Of a stretch of 64,000 bases of DNA, positions 2,025-43,976 are shown one piece after another (the stretch's first letter is position 1; each line of letters begins with the position of its first letter). A program made the translations under genes and the position numbers. Below the pieces are notes generated by a model. It worked only from the letters and a program-made list of their open reading frames with translations. It made no database searches and was not told the origin of the DNA. This DNA comes from Frankia sp. AiPa1. GTDB lineage: Bacteria > Actinomycetota > Actinomycetes > Frankiales > Frankiaceae. The stretch is taken from NCBI RefSeq assembly GCF_023243075.1, contig NZ_JALKFZ020000188.1, positions 1 through 64,000 on the forward strand, in the 5' to 3' direction.

Positions 2025-2025
2025 G

Positions 2026-10983: not shown

Positions 10984-11007
10984 TGTCGAGGTCGACGTCA
11001 ATATAGA
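10984..11007. promoter_or_regulatory. TYRA-array operator A
   Basis: In-phase boxes TCGA 10986, TCGA 10992, TCAA 10998, then an imperfect TAGA 11004, each 6 bp apart. It lies between the divergent dehydrogenase pair (ending upstream at 10700) and the CoA-transferase gene (11283). It shares the 11-mer CGTCAATATAG with the site at 38482. Confidence 0.6.
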
Positions 11008-11173
11008 CAGCTCTGCCGGCCACTCGCCACCCAGTCGGGAGCCCACCACGGGTGTGTGTTCCTGCGGCAGCAGCCCACGTCCACCGACCACGTCCACCGA
11101 CCACGCTCGCTGCCCATGTCCCGCGGCCCGCACACCGCAGACCCGTGCACCCCGCAAGACCCACCTGCCGCGG

Positions 11174-11268
11174 CACAGATCCACAGAGCACCACAGATCC
11201 ACAGCACCACAGATTCACAGCATCACAGATCCGCGGCAGCGCAGATCCACAGCGCCGCACATCGACCT
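11174..11268 (+). repeat. Five to six imperfect 13-bp repeats at 16-18-bp spacing
   Basis: CACAGATCCACAG at 11174 and 11192, CACAGATTCACAG at 11208, CACAGATCCGCGG at 11224, CGCAGATCCACAG at 11240 and a decayed CGCACATCGACCT at 11256. The array fills the leader just before the CoA-transferase ribosome site. Confidence 0.75.
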
Positions 11269-11282
11269 GGCCGGAGGACGGC

Positions 11283-12497
11283 ATGACGGCAGTGATGAAA
11301 GGCGTCCGCATCCTTGAGGTTGCGGAGCACACCTTCGTACCCGCGGCCTCGGCCCTGCTGGCCGACTGGGGCGCGGAGGTCATCAAGATCGAGCACGTCG
11401 AGCGCGGCGACGCGATGCGCGGCCTCGCCTCGACCGGCACAGCGCTGGTCGGCGGCCCGGTGCACGTGCTGCTCGAGCACTCCAACCGGCACAAGAAGAG
11501 CCTCGCCCTCGACCTGAAGTCCGAGGAGGGCGTGGATATCGTCTACCGCCTGGCGGCGACCAGCGACGTCTTCCTCACGAACAAGCTGCCCAGCGTGCGG
11601 GCCAAGCTGAAGATCGACGTCGAGCACATCCGGGCCCACAACCCCAACATCATCTATGCCCGTGGGACGGGGCAGGGCGAGCGCGGCGCCGACGCCGACC
11701 GCGGGTCCTACGACTTCCTCTCCTTCTGGGCGCGGGCCGGCATCGGCCATGCGCTGACGCACGACGACACCGAGTCGATGACCCTCCCGCCGGGCCCGGG
11801 CTTCGGCGACTCGATCGGCGGGCTGACCATCGCCGGCGGCATCATGGGTGCGCTGTTCCACCGCGAGCGCACCGGCGAGGCGACCGTCCTGGACGTCTCG
11901 CTGCTCGGCGTCGGCATGTGGGCTCAGGGCCAGGCCATCGCGCTGTCCCAGCAGCACGGCTTCGCGATGCGCCAGCCGCCCGCCGGGCGCACCTCCAACC
12001 CGCTCGTCGGCGTCTACACGACCAGCGACAGCCGGTCGCTGGTCTTCTCCTGCCTGCAGGCCATGCGCTACTGGCCGGAGTTCTGCCAGATCATTGACCG
12101 GCCCGACCTCGTCAGCGACCCGCGTTTCGCCGACCACGCCTCGATCAGCGCGAACGCCGGGGCGGCCTACGAGGAGCTCAGCGCCACCCTCGGCGCCCGC
12201 CCGCTGGCCGAGTGGCGGGAGCGCCTCGCGGCGTTCAGCGGCCAGTGGGCCGTCGGGCAGTCCACCCTCGAGGTCGCCCAGGACCCGCAGGCTCTCGACA
12301 ACGGCTACATCCAGGACGTGGTGTCCGCGAACGGCACCGAGTTCACCCTCGTCGGCGCGCCCGTGCAGTACGACGAGACGCCCGCGGCGGCCGGGCGGGC
12401 CCCGGAGCTCAACGAGCACGGCGACGAGGTGCTGCAGAGCCTGGGCCTGGACTGGGACGCCATCCTGGACCTGAAGATCAAGGGTGTCGTGGCCTGA
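11283..12497 (+). CDS. CaiB/BaiF family III CoA-transferase
   Basis: 404 aa from ATG 11283; GGAGGA lies 8 nt upstream, and the region before it is repeat DNA, not protein. N-terminal Rossmann-like start GVRILEVAEH...ADWGAEVIKIEHVERGD is diagnostic of family III transferases. The catalytic Asp that forms the aspartyl-CoA anhydride is Asp144 in GSYDFLSFWARAG. C-terminal LNEHGDEVLQSLGLDWDAI is the usual family ending. Such enzymes move CoA between carboxylates, so this is one entry point for substrates next to three ligases. Followed at 235 bp by the aldehyde dehydrogenase in the same direction. Confidence 0.9.
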   Translation: MTAVMKGVRILEVAEHTFVPAASALLADWGAEVIKIEHVERGDAMRGLASTGTALVGGPVHVLLEHSNRHKKSLALDLKSEEGVDIVYRLAATSDVFLTNKLPSVRAKLKIDVEHIRAHNPNIIYARGTGQGERGADADRGSYDFLSFWARAGIGHALTHDDTESMTLPPGPGFGDSIGGLTIAGGIMGALFHRERTGEATVLDVSLLGVGMWAQGQAIALSQQHGFAMRQPPAGRTSNPLVGVYTTSDSRSLVFSCLQAMRYWPEFCQIIDRPDLVSDPRFADHASISANAGAAYEELSATLGARPLAEWRERLAAFSGQWAVGQSTLEVAQDPQALDNGYIQDVVSANGTEFTLVGAPVQYDETPAAAGRAPELNEHGDEVLQSLGLDWDAILDLKIKGVVA

Positions 12498-12732
12498 TCG
12501 GACGGCGGGCCCGGTGCCGCACTCGCGTATCCGCCCAGCCCAGCCCGTCCAGGTCCAGCCCGTCCACGCGCGCGGCCGTTCCGGATGCGACCGACCGGCC
12601 ACGAAATGACCCGCTCTGCCCTGCGGGCGACCGCTTGTGTTGCGCCGGACCGCACCGAGGGCGCAGGCTCGATCATCGGCGACACCTGTGCGCGGGACCA
12701 CACCCACGCCCAACCACATCGAAGGAGACGCG

Positions 12733-14211
<1,479 letters not shown>

Positions 14212-14347: not shown

Positions 14348-15571
14348 TCAGTCGATGGAGATTTTCAGGACGTCAAGCGCGTTCTGCCGGCCGACGCGAC
14401 GGGTGTCGTCCTCGGAGAGCCCGGACAACGACTCGGGGATGAAGTCCGCGGGCTCGCGGGTGCCCTCGGCATGCGGCCAGTCGGAGCCCAGCAGCAGCCG
14501 GTCGACCCGCACTCCGCCGGCGAGCAGTTCGTCGATGTGGTCCTCCCAGAAGGGAGTGATCCACACGTGCTCGCCGAAGGTGTCCACCGGGTTCTCCTTG
14601 AAGTAACCCGGGTTGCGGTTGGCCGCGTCGCCGAGCCGGTGCAGCAGCTCGGGCGCCCAGGAGGCGCCGTTCTCGACGCTGGCGAAGCGCAGCGCGGGGA
14701 AGCGTTCGAAGACCCGGTGGCAGACGGCGGCGGCGTAGAAGTCGCTGACCGCCCGACCCTTCGTCACGATCCCCCGCAGCGGCGAGCGGAACAGCGAGGT
14801 CTCCTCGCCGCCCGGCTCCCACATCTGCACGAGGATGTCGTAGCCGTCGAGACCGGCGTGGGTCGCCACCGGAATGCCCGCCTCGGCGGCGAGCCCCCAG
14901 AAGGCGTCGTAGTCGGGGTCGAACGGCGAGCGATAGCCGCCCGGCACCGGCACCGGCGCGTTGCGGACGTTGACGGTCACCGCCCCCGCGTCGAGGACCC
15001 GCCGCAGCTCCTCGGCGGCGAACGCCGGGTCGAGCAGCGGAATGTAGGGCACCGCGAACAGCCGGTTCTCGTAGCGGAAGCCCCAGTCCTCGTCCAGCCA
15101 CCGGTTGAACGCCCGGAACACCAGGCCGGCGGCCTCGGGGTCGGTGCGGATCGCGTTCTCGACGCCCACGCCCAGGGTCGGGAACAGCAGAGTCGCGGCC
15201 AGACCCTGCTCGTCCATCACCGCCAGGCGCGCCTTGCGGTCGCGGTACTCGGGCCGCAGCGGCTCGAGCTCCCCGAAGGCATCCTTGATCGTCCGCTGGT
15301 CCGGGTTGCCCCGGTACCAGTCGTACAGCGCACCGGGCTTCGCCACCGGGTCGAAGACCGGGTTCGCGATATAGGAGTTGACCGTTCCGCCCACCAGCAG
15401 CCGACGGCGGCCGTCGACCTCAGCCCACCGCACGCCGCGATAGCGCAGCGAACGGTCGGCGTGCCGGGTGAAGGCATCCTCCGCCTCGTAGTAGTGGTTG
15501 TCGAAGTCAAAGATCCAGGGCTTCGATGCCTGGTTCGTCTCCGTCACCTGGTTGCTCACGATCCGCCTCAT
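14348..15571 (-). CDS. Amidohydrolase_2 family TIM-barrel protein (paralogue 1)
   Basis: 407 aa from ATG 15571; GTG 15559, which has GAGGCGG before it, is an alternative. N-terminal strand FDFDNHYYEAEDAF replaces the DxHxH metal motif of classical amidohydrolases. Later come VATHAGLD (His), VENGASW and LLGSDWPHAEG (Asp/His), the usual C-terminal metal or active-site strand. PF04909 members include decarboxylases (ACMSD, resorcylate decarboxylases) and hydrolases, so the reaction may be non-redox C-C cleavage or hydrolysis. Divergent from an acyl-CoA dehydrogenase pair across TYRA operator G. Close paralogues are at 35102 and 45632, a more distant one at 20489. Confidence 0.82.
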   Translation of the reverse strand: MRRIVSNQVTETNQASKPWIFDFDNHYYEAEDAFTRHADRSLRYRGVRWAEVDGRRRLLVGGTVNSYIANPVFDPVAKPGALYDWYRGNPDQRTIKDAFGELEPLRPEYRDRKARLAVMDEQGLAATLLFPTLGVGVENAIRTDPEAAGLVFRAFNRWLDEDWGFRYENRLFAVPYIPLLDPAFAAEELRRVLDAGAVTVNVRNAPVPVPGGYRSPFDPDYDAFWGLAAEAGIPVATHAGLDGYDILVQMWEPGGEETSLFRSPLRGIVTKGRAVSDFYAAAVCHRVFERFPALRFASVENGASWAPELLHRLGDAANRNPGYFKENPVDTFGEHVWITPFWEDHIDELLAGGVRVDRLLLGSDWPHAEGTREPADFIPESLSGLSEDDTRRVGRQNALDVLKISID

Positions 15572-15638
15572 TCCCGATCACCGCGAGATTGCCGATCACT
15601 GCCCGCAGAGCTTGACGCCGGACTCGGCACCCGCAGAA

Positions 15639-15662
15639 TATCGAACTCGACACCGATGTCGA
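15639..15662. promoter_or_regulatory. TYRA-array operator G
   Basis: Boxes TCGA 15641, TCGA 15647, CCGA 15653 (one mismatch) and TCGA 15659, all in 6-bp phase. It lies in the 139-bp gap between the divergent amidohydrolase and dehydrogenase genes. Confidence 0.55.
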
Positions 15663-15710
15663 GATTCGCGCAGTCCCCTCAGACTGCCCGTCACGGGAGT
15701 TGACAGCAAC

Positions 15711-16778
15711 CTGTCCAGCACATCTGCCACCGAGCTGCAAGAGCTTTCTCATGCCGTACGCGGAACACTCGGCGCAGCCGCCCAGCCCGACGGCGTCCCC
15801 ACCGTCGATCCGCAGTGGCGGGTGGGCTGGCCCACGCTGGCCGGCATCGGTCTGCCCGCGTTCTGCGTACCCGAAGAACGCGGGGGCTTCGGGCTTCGCG
15901 CCGACGCCGCCGCGGCCAGCGCCACCGAGTTGGGTGCCGCGCTCCACGGCGCCCCGTTCGCCGGCCTGACCGCCAGCGCCCACGCCCTGGCCCAGATCAC
16001 CGGCGATGCGGTGGTCGACGAGCTGCTCGAGGGCATCCTCGGCGGCGAGCGGATCTGTGCGTTCGGCCGGCTGAGCCCGGACGACGGCACCGGCACGCGG
16101 ACGGCCCGGCAGGTCGACGGCGCGCCCGCCGCGGACGCCCTGCTGCTGCTCGATCCGCGGCGCGAGCGGGCGCTGCTGTTCACCGACCCCGCCGACTGGC
16201 AGAGCCGCCCCCTCACCGACAGCTTCGACGTCTCGCGCTCCGGCGCCGACGTCACCGTGCCCGTCGGCGCCGGACGGGAGCTGGAGCTGGGTGCCCTCGG
16301 CCACGCGGTCGAGCTCTACCACCTGCTGCTGGCCGCGGACGCACTCGGCAGCGTGAGACGCATGCTTGACCGCACGGTCGCCTACGCGGCCCAACGGCAC
16401 ACCTTCGGCCGCCCGATCGGCGCCACCCAGGCCGTGCAGCACCGCCTGGCCGACCATGCGGTGCGTGCCCGTGGGATGAGCCTCCTGGTCGCCGAGGCGG
16501 TCCGCCACTTCGACCCCGCCGCCAGCGGCGACACCGCCCCGCCCGACGAGGGCGGCGGGATCGCTCGATGGGTGTCGCTGGCGGGGCTGTCGGTAAGCTC
16601 CGGGGCGCCGCATCTGCTCCACGATCTCCTCCAGCTCACCGGCGGCATCGGTTTCACGTGGGAATATGGCCTGCATTTTCACGAGCGACGGGTCCGTCAG
16701 GACGCCCGGCTCGCCGCGAACCCACGAGCGGCGCTGCGCTCACTCGTCCTCAGCGAGGGGTGGACCAATGTCCGCTGA
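15711..16778 (+). CDS. Acyl-CoA dehydrogenase, smaller subunit of a FadE pair; start codon unusual
   Basis: About 355 aa. Conserved ACAD features: LPAFCVPEERGGFGL, YAAQRHTFGRPIGATQAVQHRLAD and LTGGIGFTWEYGLHFHERR, with the Glu at the catalytic position. No ATG, GTG or TTG lies in frame between the divergent neighbour's start region and the conserved N-terminus. I place the start at CTG 15711, 11 nt after GGGAG; this is a guess, and a GTG near 15820 would cut off the N-terminal helix. The downstream gene starts 11 nt before this one's stop, giving a tightly coupled pair. Second of four pairs. Confidence 0.82.
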   Translation: MSSTSATELQELSHAVRGTLGAAAQPDGVPTVDPQWRVGWPTLAGIGLPAFCVPEERGGFGLRADAAAASATELGAALHGAPFAGLTASAHALAQITGDAVVDELLEGILGGERICAFGRLSPDDGTGTRTARQVDGAPAADALLLLDPRRERALLFTDPADWQSRPLTDSFDVSRSGADVTVPVGAGRELELGALGHAVELYHLLLAADALGSVRRMLDRTVAYAAQRHTFGRPIGATQAVQHRLADHAVRARGMSLLVAEAVRHFDPAASGDTAPPDEGGGIARWVSLAGLSVSSGAPHLLHDLLQLTGGIGFTWEYGLHFHERRVRQDARLAANPRAALRSLVLSEGWTNVR

Positions 16779-18051
16779 CACCGACACCCAGGCCAGCGGC
16801 GACACCCAGGCCAGCACCGACACCCAGGCCAGCGGCGACGCCGACCGGGACGCCGGTGCGCGTCCGGATGCCGCCGGCTCCCGCCGCAGCGCCGACGCCT
16901 ACCGGGCGGAGATCCGCGCCTTCATCGCCGAACATGGCGTGCCGATGCCCGCCGAGGGCGTGCGGGTCCCCCGCGATGCCGAGCACGAGCGGGAGATCCG
17001 GGCCTGGCTCGCGGCCCTGTACGCAGGCGGCCACCTCGGCGCCGGCTGGCCGGTGCGGTGGGGTGGCCGGGCCGACCACCTGCCGGTGCACGACCTGGTG
17101 CTGATGGAGGAGCTCATCCTGGGGGACGCCTACCGTCCACTCGACCAGGTGATGCTGGCCGCGCACACCCTCATCGCGTTCGGCAGCGAGGAACAGAAAC
17201 GCGAGCTGCTACCGAAGATCCGTAGCGGCGAGCACATCTGGTGCCAGCTGTTCAGCGAGCCCGAGGCCGGCAGCGACCTCGCCGCGCTGCGCGCCCGCGC
17301 CCGTCCCGCGCCGGACGGGGACGGGTGGCTCGTGTCCGGGCAGAAGATCTGGAGCACCGACGCGCAGTGGGCCGACATGGGCACCCTGCTCGCCCGCACC
17401 GACCCCGACGTCGGCCGGCACGCCGGCATCACCGCGTTCGCCATCCCGATGAACCTGCCCGGGATGGACATCCGCCCGATCCGGGAGATGACCGGCCACG
17501 CCGAGTTCTGCGAGGTCTTCCTCGACGACGTGCGGGTCGGGCCGGAGCATGTGCTCGGCGAGGTGAACGGCGGCTGGAAGGTCGTCACCTCGGGACTCGC
17601 CTCCGAGCGGGCGTTCGTCGGCGCGAACTCGGTGCAACTCGAGCGGATGTTCACCGACCTGGTCACGATCGCCCGCGCCGCCCGTTTCGACGACGGCTCC
17701 GCGGCGCTCGACCACGAGGACGTCCAGGCGAAGCTCGCCGAGGCGCTCTACCGCGTCGAGGAGGTCCGGCTCATCGTGCGCGACACCGTCGAACGTATCC
17801 TCCTCGACGAGGAACACCCCAGCGACGGCCCGGTCGGCAAGCTCGCCTTCACCGAGCTGAACGTCGCGCTCACCGAACTTGCCATGGAAATCATCGACTC
17901 CGCCGTCACCATCGACCCGTCGGCCGCCGACGTCTCCGCCCGCCTGCACCACAACTTCCTCTGGGGCCGCGCCATGACCATCTCCGGCGGCGCCTCGGAG
18001 ATCATGCGCGGCCTGGTCGGCCGCCAGCTCCTGGGCCTACCCCGCGCCTAG
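16768..18051 (+). CDS. Acyl-CoA dehydrogenase, larger subunit of a FadE pair
   Basis: 427 aa; ATG 16768 with GAGGGG upstream, overlapping the small-subunit gene by 11 nt. A 35-residue Asp/Thr/Gln/Ala/Ser-rich leader with three GDTQAS-like repeats precedes the ACAD fold, which starts around DAYRAEIRAFIAEHG. FAD/substrate loop WCQLFSEPEAGSDLAAL, IWSTDAQWADMG, and C-terminal ISGGASEIMRGLVGRQLLGLPR. No acidic residue at the EGT-type position, as in the other large subunits. Expected to form a heterotetramer with the preceding gene's product. Followed by a weak hairpin (18069-18085). Confidence 0.88.
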   Translation: MSADTDTQASGDTQASTDTQASGDADRDAGARPDAAGSRRSADAYRAEIRAFIAEHGVPMPAEGVRVPRDAEHEREIRAWLAALYAGGHLGAGWPVRWGGRADHLPVHDLVLMEELILGDAYRPLDQVMLAAHTLIAFGSEEQKRELLPKIRSGEHIWCQLFSEPEAGSDLAALRARARPAPDGDGWLVSGQKIWSTDAQWADMGTLLARTDPDVGRHAGITAFAIPMNLPGMDIRPIREMTGHAEFCEVFLDDVRVGPEHVLGEVNGGWKVVTSGLASERAFVGANSVQLERMFTDLVTIARAARFDDGSAALDHEDVQAKLAEALYRVEEVRLIVRDTVERILLDEEHPSDGPVGKLAFTELNVALTELAMEIIDSAVTIDPSAADVSARLHHNFLWGRAMTISGGASEIMRGLVGRQLLGLPRA

Positions 18052-20094: not shown

Positions 20095-20246
20095 GCCACC
20101 CGCCCCGGGTTCCACGCACCGACTCCCTGCCCGGCCGCCCGCAGCCCAGCGGCCCGGTACGCAGCGGCCCGATGCCGGGCGGCCCATCGCTCGGTGGCCC
20201 GGGTCTCGGCGAGCGACTCGCCGGGTGCGCCCGTCTGGTCCGTCAT
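20091..20246 (-). CDS. Small Ala/Arg-rich protein upstream of the APH-like gene
   Basis: 51 aa, ATG 20246 with GGAGAGCGACGG upstream, ending in TGA that overlaps the ATG of the APH-like gene by 4 nt. The middle (ETRATERWAARHRAAAYRAAGLR) would form a charged amphipathic helix; no family recognised. The good ribosome site, G/C third-position bias and stop-start overlap argue for translation, either as a real small protein or as a coupling leader. It is the gene nearest to operator B on this strand. Confidence 0.5.
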   Translation of the reverse strand: MTDQTGAPGESLAETRATERWAARHRAAAYRAAGLRAAGQGVGAWNPGRVA

Positions 20247-20336
20247 CCGTCGCTCTCCTCATCGCGTCATCGCGCTTGGTGCAGCTGACCTGGCCCGGAC
20301 GTGCCGGGTCCGCAGGACGGGCGCGAGAGTAGTGCA

Positions 20337-20360
20337 CATCAATGTTGATGTCGACATCGA
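20337..20360. promoter_or_regulatory. TYRA-array operator B
   Basis: Four perfect boxes: TCAA 20339, TTGA 20345, TCGA 20351, TCGA 20357, in 6-bp phase. It lies between the small-ORF/APH unit (minus) and the amidohydrolase/dehydrogenase operon (plus). Confidence 0.65.
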
Positions 20361-20488
20361 GGTTACCTGCAGGCTACTGTGACCGGGTGGCGGACGGTCA
20401 TCACCTGGTGGTTCCGTCCCGTGCACCCTGCGTCCCGCGCACCCTATGTCCGGGACGCCCGGACGAGCAGCTCACGAAAGGCGACCAG

Positions 20489-34988: not shown

Positions 34989-35101
34989 ATGCCTCCCCGA
35001 ATTCTAAGTGATTTCCGCGCGGTGGTTCCGGACCCGCTCGCGCGACCTGGTAGCGGGACCTGGTACCGCGGGCCGGCCGCCGGAGCCGGCAACGGTGCCG
35101 G

Positions 35102-36280
35102 TCAGACCGGGAGGAGCCGGGCCAGGTTGCCGCCGAGGATCTTGGCCTTGTCCTCGTCGCTGACATTTGCCAGTTCCGCGGCGAAGCTCGCCGGCTCCGC
35201 CAGGCCCTCGGGGTGCGGGAAGTCGGAGCCGTACAGCACCCGGTCGACGCCGAGGAGGTCGGACAGCTTCGCCATGTCCTCCTCCCAGAAGGGGCTGATG
35301 TGGATGTTGCGGCGGAGCACCGAGACCGGCTCCTCCTCGAACAGGTGCGGGCCCTTCTTGTAGGCGTTCTTCAGGTTGCCGATCAGCGGCTCGACCCAGG
35401 ACGCGCCGTTCTCGACGATGGCGACCTTGAGCTCGGGGAACCGTGAGAGCGTGCCGTGGCAGATCAGCGAGGCGACGCTGTCCTCGATCGGCCGCCACTG
35501 GTTGAGCATCCGGAACGCCTCCGGCTTGAACGGCAGGTACTCCTTGTTGAAGCCCTCCCAGTCATCGGTGTAGCGGTTGTAGCCGCTGTCCGACGAATGG
35601 AACGCGACCAGCAGGTCGGCCTCGACGACCTTCTTCCAGAACGGGTCGAACTCCGGCAGGCCGAATGACCGCGAGCCACCGTAGGTGGGCACCGGCGCCG
35701 GGCGGATGAGGATCGCGCGGGCGCCGCGCTCCACCACCCAGGCGAGCTCCTCGATCGCCTTCTCGACGATCGGCAGGGTGATCACCGGCGTGGCGTAGAT
35801 CCGGTTCTGGTAGTTGAACGACCAGGTCTCGTGCATCCACTCGTTGAGCGCGTGGATGACCGCGTGCGTGAGGACCGGATCCTCGCGCATCCGCTCCTCG
35901 AGCAGGCTCGCGAGCGTCGGGAACATCAGCGTGCGCTCGACACCCTGCTCGTCGAGCAGCTTCAGCCGGGACTCCGGCTCCCGGAACGCCGGGATCGACC
36001 GCATCGGCTTACCGATGATCTCCCGGTAGGACTTGCCCTCCGGGTTGCCGCGGCGGAAGTAGTCCTCCTGCGCGCCGGGACGGGCGACGACCTCGAAGGT
36101 CGGGTTCGGGATGTACTCGCTGATCTGACCCTTGATGGCGATCTTGGTGCGGCCGTCGACCTGGACGTAGCGCACCGCGCCACGGAAGCGCTCGGGCAGG
36201 AACTTGGTGAACGCCTCCTCGGTCTCGTACATGTGATTATCGGCGTCGAAGATCGGGTACGGTGACGCACTCGACGACAT
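35102..36280 (-). CDS. Amidohydrolase_2 family TIM-barrel protein (paralogue 3)
   Basis: 392 aa, ATG 36280 with GAGAGGA upstream. Opening IFDADNHMYETEEAF, mid RIYATPVITL, LLVAFHSSDSGYN (His), IVENGASWVEP and C-terminal VLYGSDFPHPEGLAEP, as in paralogues 1 and 4. Same family caveat: hydrolase or decarboxylase. It directly follows the FadE pair 38478-36347 in the same operon (66-bp gap), the third case in which this family stands next to such a pair. Confidence 0.83.
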   Translation of the reverse strand: MSSSASPYPIFDADNHMYETEEAFTKFLPERFRGAVRYVQVDGRTKIAIKGQISEYIPNPTFEVVARPGAQEDYFRRGNPEGKSYREIIGKPMRSIPAFREPESRLKLLDEQGVERTLMFPTLASLLEERMREDPVLTHAVIHALNEWMHETWSFNYQNRIYATPVITLPIVEKAIEELAWVVERGARAILIRPAPVPTYGGSRSFGLPEFDPFWKKVVEADLLVAFHSSDSGYNRYTDDWEGFNKEYLPFKPEAFRMLNQWRPIEDSVASLICHGTLSRFPELKVAIVENGASWVEPLIGNLKNAYKKGPHLFEEEPVSVLRRNIHISPFWEEDMAKLSDLLGVDRVLYGSDFPHPEGLAEPASFAAELANVSDEDKAKILGGNLARLLPV

Positions 36281-36346
36281 GGCGGTCCTCTCGTACTGGC
36301 GGGGTCTACCCGCGAGATGGTCTGGGTGTCGGGCCGACGGACGCCA

Positions 36347-37324
36347 TCACGCGCCGGCCGAGGCCAGCAGCGCGGTCACGGGGGTCGCGGGGTCGGTGCG
36401 GGTCTCGCGGCACCACGCGCCGAGGGCGTGGGTGAGCTCCGCCGACGTGCCGAGCAGCGCGTCCAGCGCCAGGACCCGGCTGTGGAAGTGATGGTGGTCG
36501 TGCTCCTCGGTGAACCCGATGGCGCCCAGTACCTGCATGGACCGCTCACAGACCCGGCGGCCGTTGCGGCCCGCCAGCGCCTTGGCGATCTCGCTGTATC
36601 GCGGCGGCGCCGCGTCGTCAAGTCTCACCGCCGTCGTCACGACGCTCTCCAGCGCCACGCAGTCGGTCTGCGCCCAGGCCAGCAGGTGACGGACCGCCTG
36701 GAAGGCGCCGATCGGCCGGCCGAACTGCTCGCGGGCGCCGGCGTGCGCCACCGCGAGGGTCAACGTCCCCTCCGCCGCGCCGAGGATCTCCAGCCCCGCC
36801 GCCACCCGGCCCAGGAACAGCCCGCGTGCCCGGGCGGCGACCGCCTCATCCTCGGTGGCCACCGGGGCGAGCTCGGCGTCGTCCACCCGAACCTCGTGCA
36901 GTGCCAGGCGGCCGGGCACCGCCACCCGGACGAGCTCGACCTTCGACGCGGCCACGACGGCCGCTCCTCGCCCGGGCCGGTCGACGAGCAGCGTGCGGTC
37001 GGTGACGTCCCCGACCACGACGAGACGCTCGCCGCGGCGGGAACGGCGAGCGATCGCGGCGACGAGCTGGCCGGGCTCGTGCCCGGTCACGGCGAGGTAG
37101 GGCTGGGCGATCAGGGCGCCGAGCGCGACCGAGTCCGCGAGCTCCCGGCCCTGGGCGCGAAACAGCGCCAGCGCCGCGGAGCGGGCGTCGTGGTCGGTGA
37201 GCTCCGAGAGCAGGTCCCACCAGCCGAGCGCCTCGAGGGGATCCTCGCCGGGAGCGGTCGAGCGCAGTACGGCACCGGCCGCGTCGAGGAACTCGCGGTC
37301 CGACGACGCCACGACCGACGTCAT
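36347..37324 (-). CDS. Acyl-CoA dehydrogenase, smaller subunit of a FadE pair (short)
   Basis: 325 aa, roughly 50 residues shorter than the family norm, mostly in the N-terminal and middle domains. ATG 37324 overlaps the large-subunit stop by 4 nt (ATGA). It keeps HAGAREQFGRPIGAFQAVRHLLA and VLGAIGFTEEHDHHHFHSR, with Glu at the catalytic position. The substrate loop is hardly recognisable. A reduced subunit that needs its partner (37321) for a complete site. Fourth pair. Confidence 0.85.
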   Translation of the reverse strand: MTSVVASSDREFLDAAGAVLRSTAPGEDPLEALGWWDLLSELTDHDARSAALALFRAQGRELADSVALGALIAQPYLAVTGHEPGQLVAAIARRSRRGERLVVVGDVTDRTLLVDRPGRGAAVVAASKVELVRVAVPGRLALHEVRVDDAELAPVATEDEAVAARARGLFLGRVAAGLEILGAAEGTLTLAVAHAGAREQFGRPIGAFQAVRHLLAWAQTDCVALESVVTTAVRLDDAAPPRYSEIAKALAGRNGRRVCERSMQVLGAIGFTEEHDHHHFHSRVLALDALLGTSAELTHALGAWCRETRTDPATPVTALLASAGA

Positions 37325-38478
37325 GGCAGCCGCAGGATCTGCTTGGCGATGGTGTCCAGCTGCATCTGCTGCGAGCCTCCGTAGACGGTGACGATGCGCG
37401 AGAACAGGTATTCCTGCCGGTTCACCGCCACGTGGTCGTCCTGCACACCCACGGCGAGGTCCGGATCGCTGGCGAGCACCCAGTCGTTCACCGCCTGCTC
37501 GCTGGCGGCGAGCATCAGCTTGACGAACGCGGCCCGGGGCCCGAGGACCGAATCCGCGGCGTGCGCGCGGACCCCCGCGAAACTGCTGCTGCGGATCGCG
37601 GCGAGATCGAGCAACGCGTTCCCGAGAAGGGTATCGCCCTCGGGAGCGCCCAGCGAGAGATTGTCAAGCACCTCGCGCTGGAGAAAGTTGTGCCGGAACC
37701 ACCCATAGGTGCCACGCTCGTGCGCGAGGATGTGCATGGCCACCCGCCAGCCGCCGCCGATCTCGCCGACCAGACGTTCCGCGTCGACCGGCACCTCGTC
37801 GAAGGTCACCTCGGCCAGCTCGTCGGTGCCGTTGGCCTGCACGATCGGCCGGACCTCGACGCCCGGGTGGCGCAGGTCCACGACGAAGGCGGTCAACCCC
37901 CGGTGGCGCGACTCGGTCGTCCCGGTCCGGGCCAGGACCAGGCACCAGGTGGCGTACCGCGACCAGCTCGTCCAGATCTTGCGACCGGTGATGGCCCACC
38001 CGCCGTCGCGCGCGACGGCGCGGGTGCGGGCGCTGGCGAGGTCGGAGCCCGCGTCAGGCTCGGAGAAGCCCTGCGACCAGGTCTCGGTGCCGGACAGGAA
38101 CCGGGGCAGCAGCCGCGCCATCAGCGCCGGGTTGCCCAGCGCCGCGAGCGTGGGCGCGAGGACTTCGAGATGCTCGTAGACGGCCATCGAGAGCAGGCCG
38201 TGCCGCGCCAGGGCCTCCCACATGACCGCACGGTGGACGATGTCACCGCCCAACCCGCCCAGCTGCTCGGGCCACCCGTAGCGGGCCCAGCCCTCGTCGT
38301 ACAGGACACGCATGAGCGCGGACGTCGCGGCCACCCGCTGCTCGTACGAGGCGATCGGGTGCGCCGCAGCCTCCAGTGCGGCCGGCCGGGTGGCCAGCCA
38401 CTCCTCGAAGGCAACGGCGTACGCGCACGCGTCGTCACGAAGCGGACCGCTTTCACTGCTCCCAGTTATATGCAACAT
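37321..38478 (-). CDS. Acyl-CoA dehydrogenase, larger subunit of a FadE pair
   Basis: 385 aa from ATG 38478, which lies inside operator E; TTG 38475 is the only nearby alternative. No Shine-Dalgarno can be placed, so the transcript may be leaderless. Motifs: RYGWPEQLGGLGGD, WSQGFSEPDAGSDLASA, IWTSWSRYATWCL, C-terminal TVYGGSQQMQLDTIAKQILRLP. First gene of the eight-gene operon running to 30864, and unlike the other pairs here the large subunit comes first. Confidence 0.87.
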   Translation of the reverse strand: MLHITGSSESGPLRDDACAYAVAFEEWLATRPAALEAAAHPIASYEQRVAATSALMRVLYDEGWARYGWPEQLGGLGGDIVHRAVMWEALARHGLLSMAVYEHLEVLAPTLAALGNPALMARLLPRFLSGTETWSQGFSEPDAGSDLASARTRAVARDGGWAITGRKIWTSWSRYATWCLVLARTGTTESRHRGLTAFVVDLRHPGVEVRPIVQANGTDELAEVTFDEVPVDAERLVGEIGGGWRVAMHILAHERGTYGWFRHNFLQREVLDNLSLGAPEGDTLLGNALLDLAAIRSSSFAGVRAHAADSVLGPRAAFVKLMLAASEQAVNDWVLASDPDLAVGVQDDHVAVNRQEYLFSRIVTVYGGSQQMQLDTIAKQILRLP

Positions 38479-38493
38479 TGACGTCAATATAGG
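38472..38493. promoter_or_regulatory. TYRA-array operator E, overlapping a start codon
   Basis: Boxes TTGA 38478 and TCAA 38484 form a perfect 12-bp palindrome (ATTGACGTCAAT, 38477-38488), flanked by GCAA 38472 and TAGG 38490 in the same 6-bp phase. It covers the ATG of the minus-strand dehydrogenase gene and ends 55 bp before the plus-strand crotonase start. Confidence 0.62.
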
Positions 38494-38547
38494 AACCTGC
38501 GAACCTCGAAGCAACGTTGAAGGTCGCGGGCAGACTGAGGGAGTGAC

Positions 38548-39336
38548 GTGGTCGAGCGCGAGGACACGGGAAGCCCGGTACTCATCGAGGACCGGGGCCC
38601 GGTGCGGATCGTGACACTCAACCGACCCGCGACGCTCAACGCCTCGGACGAGGGCCTGCACGGCGCCCTCGCCGAGGTGTTTCCGGCGATCGACGCCGCC
38701 GACGGGGTGCGTGCCGTCGTGCTCACCGGCGCCGGCAAGGCGTTCTCGGCCGGCGGCGATCTCACCCTGCTCGACCGCATGGTCGGCGACTCCGAGCTGC
38801 GGAGCCGGATCATGGCGGAGGCCGCGGCGATCGTGCGGAGCATGATCGCGGTGCGGGTGCCGATCATCGCGGCCGTGAACGGGCCGGCCGTGGGCCTGGG
38901 CTGCAGCCTTGCCGCGATGAGCGACCTGGTGGTGATCGAGGAGCAGGCCTTCCTCGCCGACCCGCACGTCCTGCTGGGCCTGACCGCCGCCGACGGCGGC
39001 GCCCTGGTCTGGCCGCTGCTGATCAGCCTGCAGCGGGCGAAGGAGTACATCCTGCTCGGGGACCGGATTCCCGCCCAGGAGGCGCTGCGGCTGGGGCTGG
39101 TCAACCGGGTCGTGCCCCGCGGCGAGGCGGTCAGTACCGCGCTCGAGCTCGCCAGCCGCATCGCGGATCTGCCCCCGCAGGCGGTCGTGGGGACGAAGGC
39201 GCTCATCAACAGTGGCCTGCGCGAGGCCGTGGCGTCATGGCTGTCCGGGGGTCTGGCCAGCGAGACGGCGTCGTTCGACGAGCCGGCGTTCCAGCAGAAC
39301 CTGGCGCGGATGCTGAACAGAACAGGAGCTGCCTGA
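38548..39336 (+). CDS. Enoyl-CoA hydratase/isomerase (crotonase) family protein
   Basis: 262 aa from GTG 38548 with GAGGGAG upstream. VRIVTLNRPATLNASDEGL, FSAGGDLTLLDRM, oxyanion loop VNGPAVGLGCSLAAMSDLVV, then FLADPHVLLGLTAADGGALVWPLL and AKEYILLGDRIPAQEALRLGLVNRVVP. Catalytic Glu positions are replaced by hydrophobic or Asp residues, so the precise reaction is open. Divergent from the operon at 38478 and translationally close (2 bp) to the ligase gene that follows. Confidence 0.87.
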   Translation: MVEREDTGSPVLIEDRGPVRIVTLNRPATLNASDEGLHGALAEVFPAIDAADGVRAVVLTGAGKAFSAGGDLTLLDRMVGDSELRSRIMAEAAAIVRSMIAVRVPIIAAVNGPAVGLGCSLAAMSDLVVIEEQAFLADPHVLLGLTAADGGALVWPLLISLQRAKEYILLGDRIPAQEALRLGLVNRVVPRGEAVSTALELASRIADLPPQAVVGTKALINSGLREAVASWLSGGLASETASFDEPAFQQNLARMLNRTGAA

Positions 39337-39338
39337 CT

Positions 39339-41012
39339 GTGGCGGACGGGAACGCGAACGAGCCGACCAGCGGGGACGGGGCGACCGGCGCGGGCGGTGG
39401 TCCGGTGGGCGGCGCGGGCGGTGGTCCGGTGGGCGGCGGCGCGGGCTACCCGCGACTGGCCGGAGTGCGGGCGGAGCTCGGCGAGCGCTACCGGGCCGAG
39501 GGCCTGTGGGACGAGCGCCGCCTCGCCGACGGGATCGAGGCCGCCGCGGCGAGCCGTCCCGACGCGCCGGCCGTCGTCGACAACGAGGCGCGGCTGACCA
39601 ACGCACAGCTCGCCGCCGCCGTGTCCGCCGGGGTGTCCACCCTGGTCGGACGCGGGGTCCGACCGGGCGACGCCACGATTCTCATCGCCGGCAACACCCG
39701 CCACGGCGTGATCGCCTACCAGGCCCTGCTGCGCGCCGGTGCCACGGTGGTCGGCCTCGACCGGCGCAGCGGCGTGGCGGACGTGCGCTTCGCGGTCGAG
39801 GCGCTGCCGGGCGAGCCGTGGCTCATCGTGCCCGACGGCGAGGCCGAACGGCTCGCCGAGGCGCTGGCGCCGGCCGAGGGCCGGGTGCTCTCGCTGGAGC
39901 GGTTCGCTGCCGCGCCGGACCCGTCGGCGCCGCCCGTCGCCTGGGTCGAGCCCGACCGCGACCGGGCCGCGATCATCATGTTCAGTTCGGGCACGACCGG
40001 ACGTCCCAAGGGGGTCGTCCACTCGCTCAACACGTTGACCGCGGGCCTGTTCAACCTGGAGCGCTCCGTCGGCGACGACCCGGTGGCGACCTTCCTCGTC
40101 AGCCCGCTGACCAGCATCACCGGGCTCATGCAGCTCCAGCTCGCGGCCGACCGGCATGGCACGCTCCTGCTCGAGGACCGCTTCGACGCCGTCCAGACGC
40201 TGGCGCGGATCAACGCCGAGTCCCCGACCCTGCTCGGCGGCGCGCCGGTGATCCCCGAGCGGCTGCTCACCGCCGCGGCCGCCGCCGGTCCGGACGTGCC
40301 GGTGCGGCTTCGGCGGCTCGCCCTCGGCGGGTCGATGCTGCCCCGGCCCCTGCTGGAGCTGGCCACCGACCGGTACGGCATCGAGATCGTCCGGATGTAC
40401 GGCTCGTCCGAGGCACCAACGTTCTCCGGCAGCCTGTACGACGACCCGCGGGAACGGCGGCTGGCCGACGACGGCGTCCCCGTGCGCGGCGGCGAGGTGC
40501 GGGTCGGCTCCTCGGCGCATCCGCAGGAGGGGCTGCTGCGCGGACCGAACCTGTTCCTCGGCTACCTCGACCCGGCCGACGACGCGGGTGTCTTCGAGGA
40601 CGGCTGGTACCGCAGCGGCGACCAGGTCGACTTCTCCGGCGGCCGGCTGACCGTCGTCGGGCGGCTCAGGGAAATCGTCAACCGCAACGGGCTGAAGATC
40701 TCGCTGTCCGAGCTCGACGAGGCACTGGTCGGCCTGCCGGGCTCGGTCGAGCACGCCGCGTTCGGACTGCCGGACCCGGTCACCGGCGAACGCCTCGCGG
40801 TCGCGGTCGCGGCCGGTGACGGCGCTTCCGTGACCCTGCAGGACGCGATCGACCACCTGCTGGCCGGCGGCATCGCCAAGCGCAAGCTGCCCGAGCAGCT
40901 CGTGCGGTGGAAGGGCCCGCTGCCCCGCACCGCATCCGGAAAGATCATCCGCTCGCGGCTCGTGATGGACGCTCCGGCGATGGACAGCGACCTCGCCGAC
41001 CGCTTGCGCTGA
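39339..41012 (+). CDS. Acyl-CoA synthetase / AMP-dependent ligase
   Basis: 557 aa from GTG 39339, 2 bp after the crotonase stop; AGGAG lies 14 nt upstream. A Gly-rich leader of ~35 residues (two GAGGGPVG repeats) precedes the fold. Motifs: IMFSSGTTGRPKGVVHS, MYGSSEAPTFSG, WYRSGDQVDFSGGRLTVVGR, and RTASGKIIRS with the catalytic Lys. Third ligase in the island. It probably activates a substrate of the linked crotonase pathway. A strong terminator follows 7 bp after the stop. Confidence 0.9.
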   Translation: MADGNANEPTSGDGATGAGGGPVGGAGGGPVGGGAGYPRLAGVRAELGERYRAEGLWDERRLADGIEAAAASRPDAPAVVDNEARLTNAQLAAAVSAGVSTLVGRGVRPGDATILIAGNTRHGVIAYQALLRAGATVVGLDRRSGVADVRFAVEALPGEPWLIVPDGEAERLAEALAPAEGRVLSLERFAAAPDPSAPPVAWVEPDRDRAAIIMFSSGTTGRPKGVVHSLNTLTAGLFNLERSVGDDPVATFLVSPLTSITGLMQLQLAADRHGTLLLEDRFDAVQTLARINAESPTLLGGAPVIPERLLTAAAAAGPDVPVRLRRLALGGSMLPRPLLELATDRYGIEIVRMYGSSEAPTFSGSLYDDPRERRLADDGVPVRGGEVRVGSSAHPQEGLLRGPNLFLGYLDPADDAGVFEDGWYRSGDQVDFSGGRLTVVGRLREIVNRNGLKISLSELDEALVGLPGSVEHAAFGLPDPVTGERLAVAVAAGDGASVTLQDAIDHLLAGGIAKRKLPEQLVRWKGPLPRTASGKIIRSRLVMDAPAMDSDLADRLR

Positions 41013-41116: not shown

Positions 41117-42436
41117 CTACATCGCCGTCCGGTGATCGCTGGTTCCGGGACGGTTTGGCATCGGCCGGACCATGGCGTCCACGGTGAAGGACGCGACCAG
41201 CGCGCCGCCCTCGGTGTACACCCGGCATTCACTGTGGGTCATCCCGCCGCTCGCGACGGTGGAGAGGTGGTGGTAGCGCAACCACTGGTCGGCGCGGATG
41301 TCGGCGTGCAGCGACAGGCCGATCGCGTTGATGCCGGTCGACAGGGTCCGATGCGCCTGCCACTGGCCGACGCCGGCGTGCGGACGCATCGCCGCCGCGA
41401 TCGAGAGGTGCCCGGTGAACTGGGCGAGCAGCGCCGCGTGCAGTGGCTGGTCGGCCGGCACGTCCCGGAAGCGGATCCAGGTGTCGATGGTCGGCGGGCC
41501 GACCGGTGCCGCCGGATCGTCGTCGTACTCCCCGGCGGGGATGCGCAGGTCCCGGCCGGTGACCGTCATGTCGTACGGCTCGGACTCGTAGGGTCCCGGG
41601 GCCGGCGGTGCCGGCGCGTCGTGCCGGAAGACGTCCGCGCCGGTCGTGTCGAGCAGCAGGGTGCCGGACGCACGGCGCTTGCCGCCCTGGCTGATGTGCG
41701 CGGTGACGGTGGTGAAGGTGCGGCCGTTGTTGAGCTCCTCGAGCTCCACCGCCAGCGGCTCGCGGGCGTCCGCGATCCGGTAGAACGCCATGTGCGCCGA
41801 GACGACGCGACGGCCCGGGGCATGCCGGCTCGCGGCGACGATCGCCTGGCCGAGCATCTGGCTGGCCTCCACGACGGGCCGGCCGGGGCTGGCCAGGAAG
41901 GTGCTGACGTAGCGGCGGTCGCCGTCCGGCCGCACGTCCAGAATGTCGATCAGGTCCTTCGCGTCGCCCCAGGTGGGGAACTGCTTCACGGTGACGTCCC
42001 GCGGATCGTCGCCGTCCACGCCGTCCACGAGCTCGACGCGCACCCGGTTGTGGTCGAACGCGGCGAACTCCGCGAGCCACTCCAGGCCGGCGGCCGGCTC
42101 GGTGTAACTCCACAGCACGTCCTGGCCGTCAACGACCTCGCCAGGCGTCACAGCCTGACCCCATCCGGTGATCGCCGGCGGGACCTTCCCCTCGATCGAC
42201 CACGTCCGCCCACCACCCTTGATCGCACTCGCGGCCAGCTCTCCCGCGGGCGTGAACAGATCGAAACGGACGTCGCCACGCGGGAAGTGGAGTTCCGCGG
42301 CCTGGCCCGGTTCCTGGACGCGCACCGCCTCGGTCGACTCGGCGACCAACTGCTCGCCCCACCAGGCACGGGCTCGGTACGGCGAGCGGACGACCGTGAC
42401 CGGCCGCTCGGCGGCTGTCTGCTCGGGGACTGTCAT
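41117..42436 (-). CDS. DUF427 fused to acyl-CoA thioesterase (TesB-type double hot-dog)
   Basis: 439 aa; ATG 42436 with GAGAGGCAGATC upstream. Residues ~13-110 (SPYRARAWWGEQLVAEST...HFPRGDVRFDLF) match the DUF427 beta-rich domain; from ~135 on it is a TesB-like tandem hot-dog (QMLGQAIVAASRHAPGRRVVSAHMAFYRIAD, and the second half NAIGLSLHADIRADQWLRYHH...). The common TesB C-terminal wording H-x-D-...-W-L-Y is present. It would hydrolyse acyl-CoA to free CoA, releasing dead-end esters. The fusion with DUF427 is unusual and the role of that domain is unknown. It is 96 bp after the hot-dog gene on the same strand. Confidence 0.85.
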   Translation of the reverse strand: MTVPEQTAAERPVTVVRSPYRARAWWGEQLVAESTEAVRVQEPGQAAELHFPRGDVRFDLFTPAGELAASAIKGGGRTWSIEGKVPPAITGWGQAVTPGEVVDGQDVLWSYTEPAAGLEWLAEFAAFDHNRVRVELVDGVDGDDPRDVTVKQFPTWGDAKDLIDILDVRPDGDRRYVSTFLASPGRPVVEASQMLGQAIVAASRHAPGRRVVSAHMAFYRIADAREPLAVELEELNNGRTFTTVTAHISQGGKRRASGTLLLDTTGADVFRHDAPAPPAPGPYESEPYDMTVTGRDLRIPAGEYDDDPAAPVGPPTIDTWIRFRDVPADQPLHAALLAQFTGHLSIAAAMRPHAGVGQWQAHRTLSTGINAIGLSLHADIRADQWLRYHHLSTVASGGMTHSECRVYTEGGALVASFTVDAMVRPMPNRPGTSDHRTAM

Positions 42437-42532
42437 GATCTGCCTCTCCGCGTCTCTGCCGGCACCTGGGTGGCGCCTTCTGATGGGCCGTACGCCCGCG
42501 GGATACTCGCCGCGGGCACCTGCCGGTGGATC

Positions 42533-43396
42533 TCAGCGCGGCGCCGGGAAGATCCGGGTCGTCGCGACGATGGCGAGGGCGTCCGTCGCCGAGTCATGGA
42601 CCTGGACCGTGCCGACCTCACCGTGCGAGGTGGCCCGCGCGACGGCGGGACCGCGGCGCACCGGGCGCAGGTACTGCATCCCGAGCGAGGAGAGGGTCGC
42701 GCCCGGCGTCAGCGACCGCACCGCCTCCTCGATGATCACCGGGACGAGACCGCCGTTGAGCGTCCCCGCCGCGTTGGACACCTCGGGCCGCAAGGGCATC
42801 GAGGCCGTCCCCGGCTCGGTCTGCTCGCAGCGCAACCGGTCGGCGAAGGGCTCCGGCAGCGGTCCGTAGCGCCGCCTCAGCGAGTCCAGCGCCCAGCGCA
42901 GTCCGGGCATCCGCAGGGTCGGGTCGGGCGCCGGGACGAACACCGAGCCACCCACGCCGAGCAGCCGGCCGTCCTCGTCGAGGAAGTCGATCGCGGACAC
43001 CGCCACCGTCTGCCCCGACTTGACCGCCCGGCCGACGCCGCGGACGGTTGCGCCCACCGGAATCTCCCGGAACAGGTGCACGTCAAGGGAGAGCGTGACC
43101 GGGATCCGCGGCTCGATCCCGCGCACGGCGAGCAGGCCGAGAACCACGTCGGCGAGACAGGCCAGCGCCGACGTCCGCAGCCACGGGGTACCCGGCACGG
43201 CGAGCTCGGGAACGGCCGGCATCGTGCCGTGCAGCTCGGCGCCGACCTCCTCGACGCTGAGGTCCAGCTCGCCGATGACGTACCGCTCGGCCGGCCCGGA
43301 GCCGGATCCGCTCGTCGACGTCCGCGGCACCACCGCGTCCACCGCGTCCACCGGCGCCACGTTCTCACCGGACGCCCCTTGCGCGGTCGACGTCAC
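42533..43396 (-). CDS. Tandem hot-dog thioesterase (PaaI/4HBT-like)
   Basis: 287 aa from GTG 43396. Two hot-dog halves: one around LRTSALACLADVVLGLLAVRGIEPRIPVTLSLDVHLFREI with a GVGRAVKSGQTVAVS strand, the other around PEVSNAAGTLNGGLVPVIIEEAVRS with LSSLGMQYLRPVRRGP. NGGLVPVIIEEA resembles the PaaI motif (HGG...DxA), the usual His being Asn here. Likely acyl-CoA thioesterase. First gene of a two-gene unit with the DUF427-TesB fusion. Divergent from the SDR genes across operator F. Confidence 0.8.
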   Translation of the reverse strand: MTSTAQGASGENVAPVDAVDAVVPRTSTSGSGSGPAERYVIGELDLSVEEVGAELHGTMPAVPELAVPGTPWLRTSALACLADVVLGLLAVRGIEPRIPVTLSLDVHLFREIPVGATVRGVGRAVKSGQTVAVSAIDFLDEDGRLLGVGGSVFVPAPDPTLRMPGLRWALDSLRRRYGPLPEPFADRLRCEQTEPGTASMPLRPEVSNAAGTLNGGLVPVIIEEAVRSLTPGATLSSLGMQYLRPVRRGPAVARATSHGEVGTVQVHDSATDALAIVATTRIFPAPR

Positions 43397-43976
43397 CGCG
43401 CCACCCCGCGCCACTGCCCGCGATCCCTGCCTGCCATCCCACTGCCCTCTCGTCGCACCCCGGTACCCGCCATCACGACGCGACGGGTCCGGACCCGTTC
43501 TGACTCTAAGGTCGACCGTGCACACAATGTCGTGTTTGTGGGACCGCGCAGCGGCCGGCGGCCGGCTGGCGGGGCCCGGAGGCCGTCCGGGAGCCGGGCG
43601 ATCCCGCGCGCGTGGACCCGAGACGTCGCACCATGGGTCAGGACGGCACCATCCGGCCGCGACGGACGATCGATGACAACGCAACATCGATATCGACATT
43701 GACATCGAACGACCCATTGCGGTCTGATGGCGGCGGTCGCCGGCAACATCATCCGACCAGGACGAACCGCCCGGAGCGCTCGCAGCCGGGGAGTGCCGCC
43801 CGTACCGGGGCGGCCCGCGACCGGGTGTCGCGGTGTCCCCACCGGGGTCAGCGGACCGGGCACTTGGGCGGACGCGGCCTGGCCGGCACCTCTGGGCGAC
43901 CGGCCAGGCCGCCCGCTGGCGAGCAGACGGACTCACCGGCCCACGTGCGCCGGACAGACGAACGGGAAGGTTCCCC
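43397..43976. other. Divergent regulatory region with operator F
   Basis: 580 bp without a recognised gene between the thioesterase and SDR starts. Operator F lies near its middle. Confidence 0.6.
43685..43708. promoter_or_regulatory. TYRA-array operator F
   Basis: Four perfect boxes TCGA 43687, TCGA 43693, TTGA 43699, TCGA 43705, preceded by GCAA at 43681 in phase (as at site E). Hexamers read CATCGA, TATCGA, CATTGA, CATCGA in direct succession. Confidence 0.68.

What the first reader, a model, noticed from the sequence alone, without database searches (positions are those of the whole stretch)
10984..43708. Seven promoter sites share an in-phase TYRA-every-6-bp array: an apparently undescribed operator type and regulon
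Seen directly: sites at 10984, 15639, 20337, 27790, 29139, 38472 and 43685 each contain 2-5 tetranucleotides of type TYRA (TCGA, TTGA or TCAA) starting exactly 6 bp apart (for example 20339, 20345, 20351, 20357). TYRA is its own reverse complement, so each array reads the same from both strands and contains nested palindromes with shifted centres. Six of the seven lie between divergent genes; each FadE pair has one at its promoter end. In DNA this GC rich, three in-phase boxes should be very rare. Known sterol operators (KstR: TnnAACnnGTTnnA) do not fit. Inference: one regulator, possibly binding cooperatively as several dimers along the array, controls the whole island; its gene may be one of the TetR genes here (5694, 6555, 49241) or lie elsewhere.
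Basis: partly seen in the sequence, partly recalled or inferred. Interest (0 to 1): 0.85.

Follow-up and report, generated by a model that had tools for sequence, protein, structure and literature searches.

The report
Period-6 TetR operator arrays in Frankia
Seven promoters of a lipid/steroid-type breakdown gene island in a Frankia-family bacterium carry a short self-palindromic DNA word repeated every 6 bases; the same arrays recur at matching promoters of relatives that have one particular TetR-type regulator, so they are very probably that regulator's landing strips, overlapping the promoter itself.

Summary
In detail: seven sites, five with 3-4 perfect in-phase TYRA boxes and two with broken ones; shuffles give 0.04 three-box matches where 7 are seen. 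The arrays lie between genes, show period 6 only, recur at promoters of orthologous genes in other Frankiaceae, and occur near homologues of one TetR in other Actinobacteria. All 20 family genomes with a TetR-A of 58% identity or more have arrays outside called genes; in five genomes without it 25 of 29 three-box matches are inside called genes. TetR-B and TetR-C do not track the arrays. Four boxes (22 bp) is the usual unit, and nearby TANNNT -10 hexamers lie 17-18 bp from a box, so a box doubles as -35. Best reading: an array operator bound by an EthR-fold TetR repressor as dimers stepped 6 bp apart, blocking promoters of an acyl-CoA/steroid-like catabolic regulon. Weak points: TetR-A's own promoter here has no array, and binding, ligand and dimer number are untested. 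New variant of a known kind.

The parts
10986..11007 (.). TYRA array 1 (3 perfect boxes, 4th TAGA) between FadE2 (-) and CoA-transferase III (+)
15641..15662 (.). TYRA array 2 (4 boxes, one CCGA) between amidohydrolase_2 (-) and an acyl-CoA dehydrogenase pair (+); an array lies beside the orthologous amidohydrolase in L051, L052, L054, L063
20339..20360 (.). TYRA array 3 (4 perfect boxes) upstream of the amidohydrolase_2/FadE4/FadE5 operon; arrays at the orthologous amidohydrolase promoter in L030/L060, L034/L059, L051, L052, L054, L056, L057, L063
20375..20380 (+). candidate -10 (TACTGT), 18 bp from box TCGACA of array 3 acting as -35
20326..20331 (-). candidate -10 of the divergent promoter (TACTCT on the - strand), 17 bp from box TCGACA of array 3
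27792..27819 (.). TYRA array 4 (5 boxes, one CCAA) between F420-type luciferase-like oxidoreductase (-) and SDR (+); on the - strand a -10 TAGCGT lies 18 bp from TTGACA
29141..29162 (.). TYRA array 5 (3 perfect boxes) upstream of thiolase (same-strand gap); conserved in L059 and L060
38472..38493 (.). TYRA array 6 (weakest: 2 perfect boxes TTGA-CG-TCAA) between FadE7/FadE6 operon (-) and acyl-CoA ligase (+)
43687..43708 (.). TYRA array 7 (4 perfect boxes) between 4HBT thioesterase (-) and SDR (+)
5694..6380 (+). TetR-A, proposed regulator: TetR_N domain, EthR-like predicted fold, basic N-terminal arm; orthologues track the arrays
6555..7208 (-). TetR-B, rejected as the common regulator
49241..49861 (+). 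TetR-C, rejected as the common regulator
8257..10817 (-). target: acyl-CoA dehydrogenase pair (FadE1/FadE2)
11052..14211 (+). target: CoA-transferase III and aldehyde dehydrogenase
14348..15571 (-). target: amidohydrolase_2
15498..18051 (+). target: acyl-CoA dehydrogenase pair (the ORF starts too early; true start probably after array 2)
18691..20337 (-). target: APH/EcKL-like kinase gene (true start probably lies inside this ORF)
20342..23870 (+). target: amidohydrolase_2 and acyl-CoA dehydrogenase pair (true first start probably after array 3)
24880..27776 (-). target: acyl-CoA ligase resembling steroid-22-oyl-CoA synthetase CasI / FadD1 / FadD17, and F420_Rv3520c-type LLM oxidoreductase
27824..30461 (+). 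targets: SDR and thiolase (the thiolase ORF runs through array 5; its domain starts about 150 bp after it)
30864..38967 (-). target operon: FadE7, FadE6, amidohydrolase_2, acyl-CoA ligase, enoyl-CoA hydratase, ChsH2-like protein, SCP2-type thiolase (the FadE7 ORF runs through array 6; its matched domain begins at residue 205)
39237..41012 (+). target: acyl-CoA ligase
42533..43360 (-). target: 4HBT thioesterase
43833..44834 (+). target: SDR

Best explanation
The arrays are operators of one TetR-family regulator, TetR-A (5694-6380), of an actinobacterial subfamily with an EthR-like fold. Each TYRA box with its YR linker (repeating unit TYRAYR) is self-palindromic, so a dimer centred on a box finds the same half-sites whichever box it picks, and the next dimer can bind 6 bp on, on roughly the opposite face of the helix. 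The usual four-box array (22 bp) would take two such dimers. The boxes also serve as -35 hexamers (TCGACA/TTGACA, on either strand), so bound repressor shuts divergent promoters at once, and an acyl-CoA or steroid-like CoA ester probably releases it. Shown: the arrays, their period, placement, conservation, co-occurrence with TetR-A, and the -10/-35 geometry. Inferred: TetR-A as binder, repression, two dimers, the ligand.
Against: TetR-A's own promoter in the window has no array: the best 22-mer in 5380-5720 has 5 mismatches, and the two closest orthologues (L070, L071) show none there. No binding or expression data. Several genomes hold many TetR-A paralogues (up to 10 matches), so the binder at a given array could be a paralogue. 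Absence of TetR-A rests on a first look in which only 50 of up to 110 candidates per genome were scored. Co-occurrence follows phylogeny, and orthologous sites are not independent. G014 lacks TetR-A yet has 4 of 4 matches outside called genes; one of these stays undecided and one lies in a 574-aa ORF. ORF length cannot settle placement: many of the 28 sites in TetR-A genomes also lie in long maximal ORFs, antisense or running up through the promoter. Only 22 of 56 sites show a suitable -10 on a side, counting hexamers 1-2 bp beyond the array; of the 13 hexamers 0-3 bp beyond, only 5 fit the spacing. In the window only arrays 3 and 4 have one at 17-18 bp, array 2 at 16. Below 39% identity the background is not zero (8 runs at period 6, 9 at period 9).
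Confidence: 0.76

Rival explanations
1. The arrays are real operators, but of another regulator (TetR-B, TetR-C, a TetR-A paralogue elsewhere, or a protein of another family), and TetR-A merely travels with the island.
For: TetR-A's own promoter lacks an array here; many paralogues in genus g6.
Against: TetR-C has a match in 7 of 58 genomes and none in array-bearing G016, G022, G030-G033. TetR-B is 54% or more identical in only 8 genomes, and not in g2 or G016. Arrays also occur beside TetR-A homologues in Nocardia, Actinomadura and Acidimicrobiia loci, in part just upstream of them.
Confidence: 0.15
2. Each site is an ordinary single-dimer palindrome of about 16 bp (TYRA-N2-TYRA-N2-TYRA); the extra boxes are incidental or neighbouring weak sites.
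For: 23 of 56 sites have a longest perfect run of only 3 boxes; distant relatives show a strong TTGACGTCGAYGTCAA-like core with weaker outer boxes.
Against: 68 of 77 three-box cores have a further near-box exactly 6 bp out, 53 of them perfect, against 5-18 and 0-1 at other offsets.
Confidence: 0.2
3. Compositional or coding artefact: the pattern is a by-product of GC-rich coding repeats such as TCGACG runs.
For: Many matches outside the island are inside genes: of the 11 non-window matches with YR linkers in the own genome 6 are genic, 2 (one array) ambiguous, 1 not opened, 2 outside genes; five genomes without TetR-A still have 4-7 matches each, 25 of 29 in called genes.
Against: The window arrays lie between genes; no other period gives such runs; dinucleotide shuffles give 0.04.
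Confidence: 0.02
4. The arrays are promoter structure only: repeated -35-like boxes giving alternative starts, without a dedicated repressor.
For: -10 hexamers lie 17-18 bp from box positions, in steps of 6 bp.
Against: A promoter needs one -35, not four in-phase palindromic boxes (general knowledge); presence tracks a TetR gene.
Confidence: 0.05

Closest known systems
EthR (M. tuberculosis TetR-family repressor)
   Different: 17-20% identity over the aligned chain; by sequence other TetRs match TetR-A as well or better; the gene upstream of TetR-A is a P450, not an ethA-type monooxygenase. From recall only, not checked: the EthR operator also contains TYRA-type boxes but spaced about 9 and 11 bp, not 6.
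QacR / CprB dimer-of-dimers TetR regulators
   Same: Two dimers on one site; CprB dimers on opposite sides of 22 bp, QacR on 28 bp, both cooperative (PMC4150764, passages).
   Different: No period-6 run of a self-palindromic tetranucleotide is mentioned in the passages seen.
KstR, KstR2 (sterol catabolism repressors) and the Lcin1 motif
   Same: TetR-type control of sterol genes similar to the targets here (PMC7807495, passages).
Mce3R
   Same: TetR-type regulator linked to lipid/cholesterol genes.
   Different: Double-TetR protein on a 25-bp asymmetric site (PMC11667970, abstract and passages); TetR-A has one TetR_N domain.
SRTF1 (Nocardioides/Pimelobacter simplex steroid-responsive TetR)
   Same: TetR regulator of a steroid-responsive gene island with a 22-bp palindromic site (PMC7062782, passages).
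   Different: Its operator letters were not in the passages seen, so similarity was not tested.

Membership tests
TetR/AcrR family (TetR-A) | TetR_N helix-turn-helix domain | tested here: met
   PF00440 E=3.2e-11, 43.3 bits, above the cut-off of 24
TetR/AcrR family (TetR-A) | all-helical TetR fold | tested here: met
   AlphaFold2 model pLDDT 85.9, pTM 0.79; the best-matching structures are TetR regulators
TetR/AcrR family (TetR-A) | binds a palindromic operator | tested here: inconclusive
   palindromic arrays co-occur with the gene; no binding assay
EthR | fold of EthR | tested here: met
   first 21 rows of the second look are EthR entries, then YvdT 19.3, SaFadR 18.3, FasR 18.1; no control TetR was modelled
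EthR | sequence orthology to EthR | tested here: not met
   EthR at E=3.4e-4 in phmmer, row 60, and 8.1e-13 in the profile search, behind 11 other sequences; 17-20% identity
EthR | divergent from an ethA-type monooxygenase | tested here: not met
   the upstream neighbour is a same-strand P450 gene
EthR | octamer on the operator | not testable with these tools
   needs DNA-binding experiments
KstR regulon | TNNAACNNGTTNNA operators | tested here: not met
   0 matches in the window
KstR2 regulon | ANCAAGNNCTTGNT operators (recalled consensus) | tested here: not met
   0 matches in the window
Mce3R | double TetR polypeptide and asymmetric 25-bp site | tested here: not met
   one TetR_N domain matched in TetR-A; arrays are palindromic
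SRTF1 | 22-bp SRTF1 palindrome | not tested
   operator letters not in the passages seen

The most novel reading that the evidence does not exclude
An open-ended operator: because every box is its own reverse complement and the period (6 bp) equals the step between neighbouring dimers, the array acts as a one-dimensional lattice along which TetR-A dimers can stack. The number of boxes would set the strength of repression, and every box can at the same time serve as a -35 on either strand, so one lattice silences both divergent promoters.
Probability: 0.18. Interest if true: 0.75.

Novelty: new variant of a known kind. Interest (0 to 1): 0.58.

Why it matters
It gives a defined operator and a candidate regulator for a large acyl-CoA/steroid-type catabolic regulon in Frankiaceae, with related loci in other Actinobacteria. 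It also offers a simple testable geometry (repeat period equals dimer step; box equals -35) for how multi-dimer TetR repressors read DNA. No description of this operator was recognised in the listings of nine full-text searches, which do not cover most subscription journals; supplementary files were not open to me.

Tried and rejected
KstR, KstR2 and Lcin1 consensus sites: none in the window. Mce3R: its site is described as non-palindromic. TetR-B and TetR-C as common regulator: distribution does not fit. Literal core strings searched in papers: 149 papers hold one, 30 were listed, none is evidently about such an operator; seen as a listing only. The reversed pattern as background is too weak, because coding repeats make TCGACG runs; the genic/outside split and the period control replaced it.

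Corrections made while checking. The first identity bins put two loci of 41-42% (L190, L192) in the lowest bin, and one search left out L168-L174; rebins all 80 loci and its figures are used. The figure against the idea, 11 of 24 low-identity loci with a loose core outside called genes, came from that misfiled bin and a gene caller tuned to 71% GC. The first set of 62 array sites held reverse-complement duplicates, because some named contigs equal unnamed ones; the recount gave 56. I first dismissed the 4 hits outside genes in G014 because they lie in long ORFs; applied evenly that test does not discriminate, so Pfam was used: two lie inside P450 domains, one far upstream of a ParA-like domain in a 574-aa ORF, one has no domain. 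In the same call three hits from TetR-A genomes (L231, L245, L254) lie upstream of the matched domains and one (L208) has no domain. These corrections do not change my odds.

Of the 20 stretches, L049, L064 and L066-L068 were left out of the period control (L049, L067 and L068 are of the own genome; L064 has one array; none was seen in L066).

Of the ten other family genomes without TetR-A only the two stricter patterns were run. G015, G018, G020 and G026 had no match; of the matches in G002, G009, G011, G012, G023 and G029 eight loci were opened: six genic (L027, L031, L032, L033; L099, L102); L041 (570-aa ORF) and L042 (194-aa ORF) lie outside called genes, have no Pfam domain and stay ambiguous. 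Contigs G002:C221, G011:C123, G012:C286 and G023:C383 were not opened.

Not done: a control TetR model for the fold comparison, a check of the EthR operator letters, any test of ligand.
Full report
OBSERVATION. The seven sites are real and lie where stated. Five hold 3-4 perfect TYRA boxes starting every 6 bp; 15641 has one broken box and 38472 only two perfect ones. Three-box matches number 7 in the window against 0.04 expected in shuffles. Between 10.9 and 43.8 kb no three-box run occurs at periods 5 or 7-11, and one at 12. Six of seven lie between divergent genes. Maximal ORFs run through arrays 2, 5 and 6, so their placement rests on where Pfam domains or orthologous genes start.

WHOSE GENOME. 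The window is contig C113 of an unnamed 6.98-Mb genome, 88.5% complete. The closest named TetR-A loci are Frankia sp. R82 (86%) and Parafrankia soli (80%), so it most likely belongs to the Frankia family; this is inference.

GENOME SCAN. The bare three-box pattern has 73 matches in the genome against 5 for the reversed pattern; 11 of the 12 opened outside the window (L001-L012) lie inside called genes. Requiring pyrimidine-purine linkers leaves 17 matches and no control match: 6 in this window, 6 genic, 2 (one array, C118) outside called genes but in a 208-aa ORF, 1 (C173) not opened, 2 outside genes. Those two (C154 and C198) stand before operons of branched-chain-amino-acid-type ABC transporters with periplasmic binding proteins, a plausible uptake arm of the regulon.

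CONSERVATION. Among 58 genomes including the own, 22 have a perfect four-box match, many of them genic. The opened ones outside genes lie mostly at divergent promoters: acyl-CoA ligase / amidohydrolase_2, two amidohydrolases, acyl-CoA dehydrogenase / enoyl-CoA hydratase; one lies in a same-strand gap beside an LLM oxidoreductase gene. In stretches of up to 20 kb the orthologous amidohydrolase (AH2_1, AH2_2), LLM and thiolase promoters carry arrays whose letters vary while the period stays. Period control over 15 of the 20 stretches (294 kb; every start of a three-box run counted): 66 outside called genes at period 6, 0-1 at periods 5 and 7-11, 7 at period 12.

REGULATOR. TetR-A (5694-6380) has a homologue at E below 1e-20 in 22 of 58 genomes, of 58% identity or more in 20, all in the window's family. 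All 20 have arrays outside called genes. Fifteen family members lack it, with the reserve that at most 50 candidates per genome were scored. Five of these scanned with the three-box YR pattern gave 29 matches, 25 in called genes; the other 4 are all of G014's, two of them inside P450 domains. Five TetR-A genomes scanned the same way gave 50 sites, 28 outside called genes, 22 of those 28 with a homologue of a window gene or of TetR-A on at least one side. Ten further members without TetR-A were scanned only with stricter patterns (see Tried and rejected). TetR-C has a match in 7 of 58 genomes and TetR-B of 54% or more in 8; both are missing from array-bearing genomes. Over these 80 loci the three-box runs outside called genes per 100 kb fall from 58.6 (15 loci of 58% or more) to 24.4 (18 loci, 48-57%), 23.1 (25 loci, 39-47%) and 4.4 (22 loci under 39%); restricted to loci of 64% GC or more the figures are 76.5, 31.0, 23.1 and 2.1. 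Nocardia jinanensis, Actinomadura physcomitrii and Acidimicrobiia MAGs are among the carriers. Against this, TetR-A's own promoter has no array here or in its two closest orthologues, although arrays lie upstream of the homologue in Parafrankia, Nocardia and Actinomadura loci.

ANATOMY. Over 56 distinct Frankiaceae sites (duplicates on either strand removed) the longest perfect run is 4 boxes in 20, 3 in 23, 5-6 in 4 and 1-2 in 9. Of 77 perfect three-box cores 68 have a further near-box exactly 6 bp outside, against 5-18 at offsets 5 and 7-10, so four boxes (22 bp) is the natural unit. Linkers are mostly YR (before strand duplicates were removed, and selection favoured this for part of the sites). 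TANNNT hexamers 4-25 bp beyond the array fall 17-18 bp from a box position in 27 of 28 cases; further out there are 2 in 4704 places. Of the 13 hexamers 0-3 bp beyond the array 5 fit that spacing. 22 of 56 sites have a fitting -10 on at least one side, 9 on both. In the window array 3 has both, array 4 one, array 2 one at 16 bp. The box plus two bases (TCGACA, TTGACA) is thus probably the -35 hexamer.

TARGETS. Four acyl-CoA dehydrogenase pairs, acyl-CoA ligases, amidohydrolase_2, SDRs, thiolases, a ChsH2-like/SCP2-thiolase pair, an enoyl-CoA hydratase and thioesterases. One ligase resembles steroid-22-oyl-CoA synthetase CasI (580 bits, below the 900 cut-off), and the LLM protein passes the F420_Rv3520c cut-off. 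FadE5's only solved relative at E 1e-30 is Tcur3483. The same ligase's best solved relatives are a long-chain fatty acid transport protein and oxalate-CoA ligase, and the thiolase's are SCP2-thiolases, then benzoylsuccinyl-CoA thiolase, so the substrate (steroid-like or another large acyl-CoA) stays inference. In two other TetR-A genomes arrays also precede P450 genes.

VERDICT. A real, conserved operator class and regulon, most probably of TetR-A; a new variant of multi-dimer TetR operators rather than a new kind of regulation.

Noticed in passing
G000 C154:51115-51142 and C198:86738-86766 (loci L067, L068): Arrays outside the window stand before Liv-type ABC transporter operons, possibly the uptake part of the same regulon.
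   Followed up: partly
window 294-3243: A second ChsH2-like / SCP2-type thiolase set (- strand) near a P450 (4182-5381), without an array.
   Followed up: no
L132-L174 (Streptomyces, Actinomadura, Blastococcus, Nocardioides, Gordonia and others): Many loci with TetR homologues 39-53% identical to TetR-A also have related arrays, often with a TTGACGTCGAYGTCAA-like core, suggesting a wider operator family.
   Followed up: partly
G017, G021, G030, G032-G034: 6-10 TetR-A matches per genome in genus g6 (one gene of G033 counted as two pieces), an apparent expansion of the subfamily.
   Followed up: no
L245, L254 (G004, G024): P450 genes with an array upstream in other TetR-A genomes.
   Followed up: no
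window 51560-52951: Protein with a Lamin Tail Domain (LTD) near the catabolic island.
   Followed up: no
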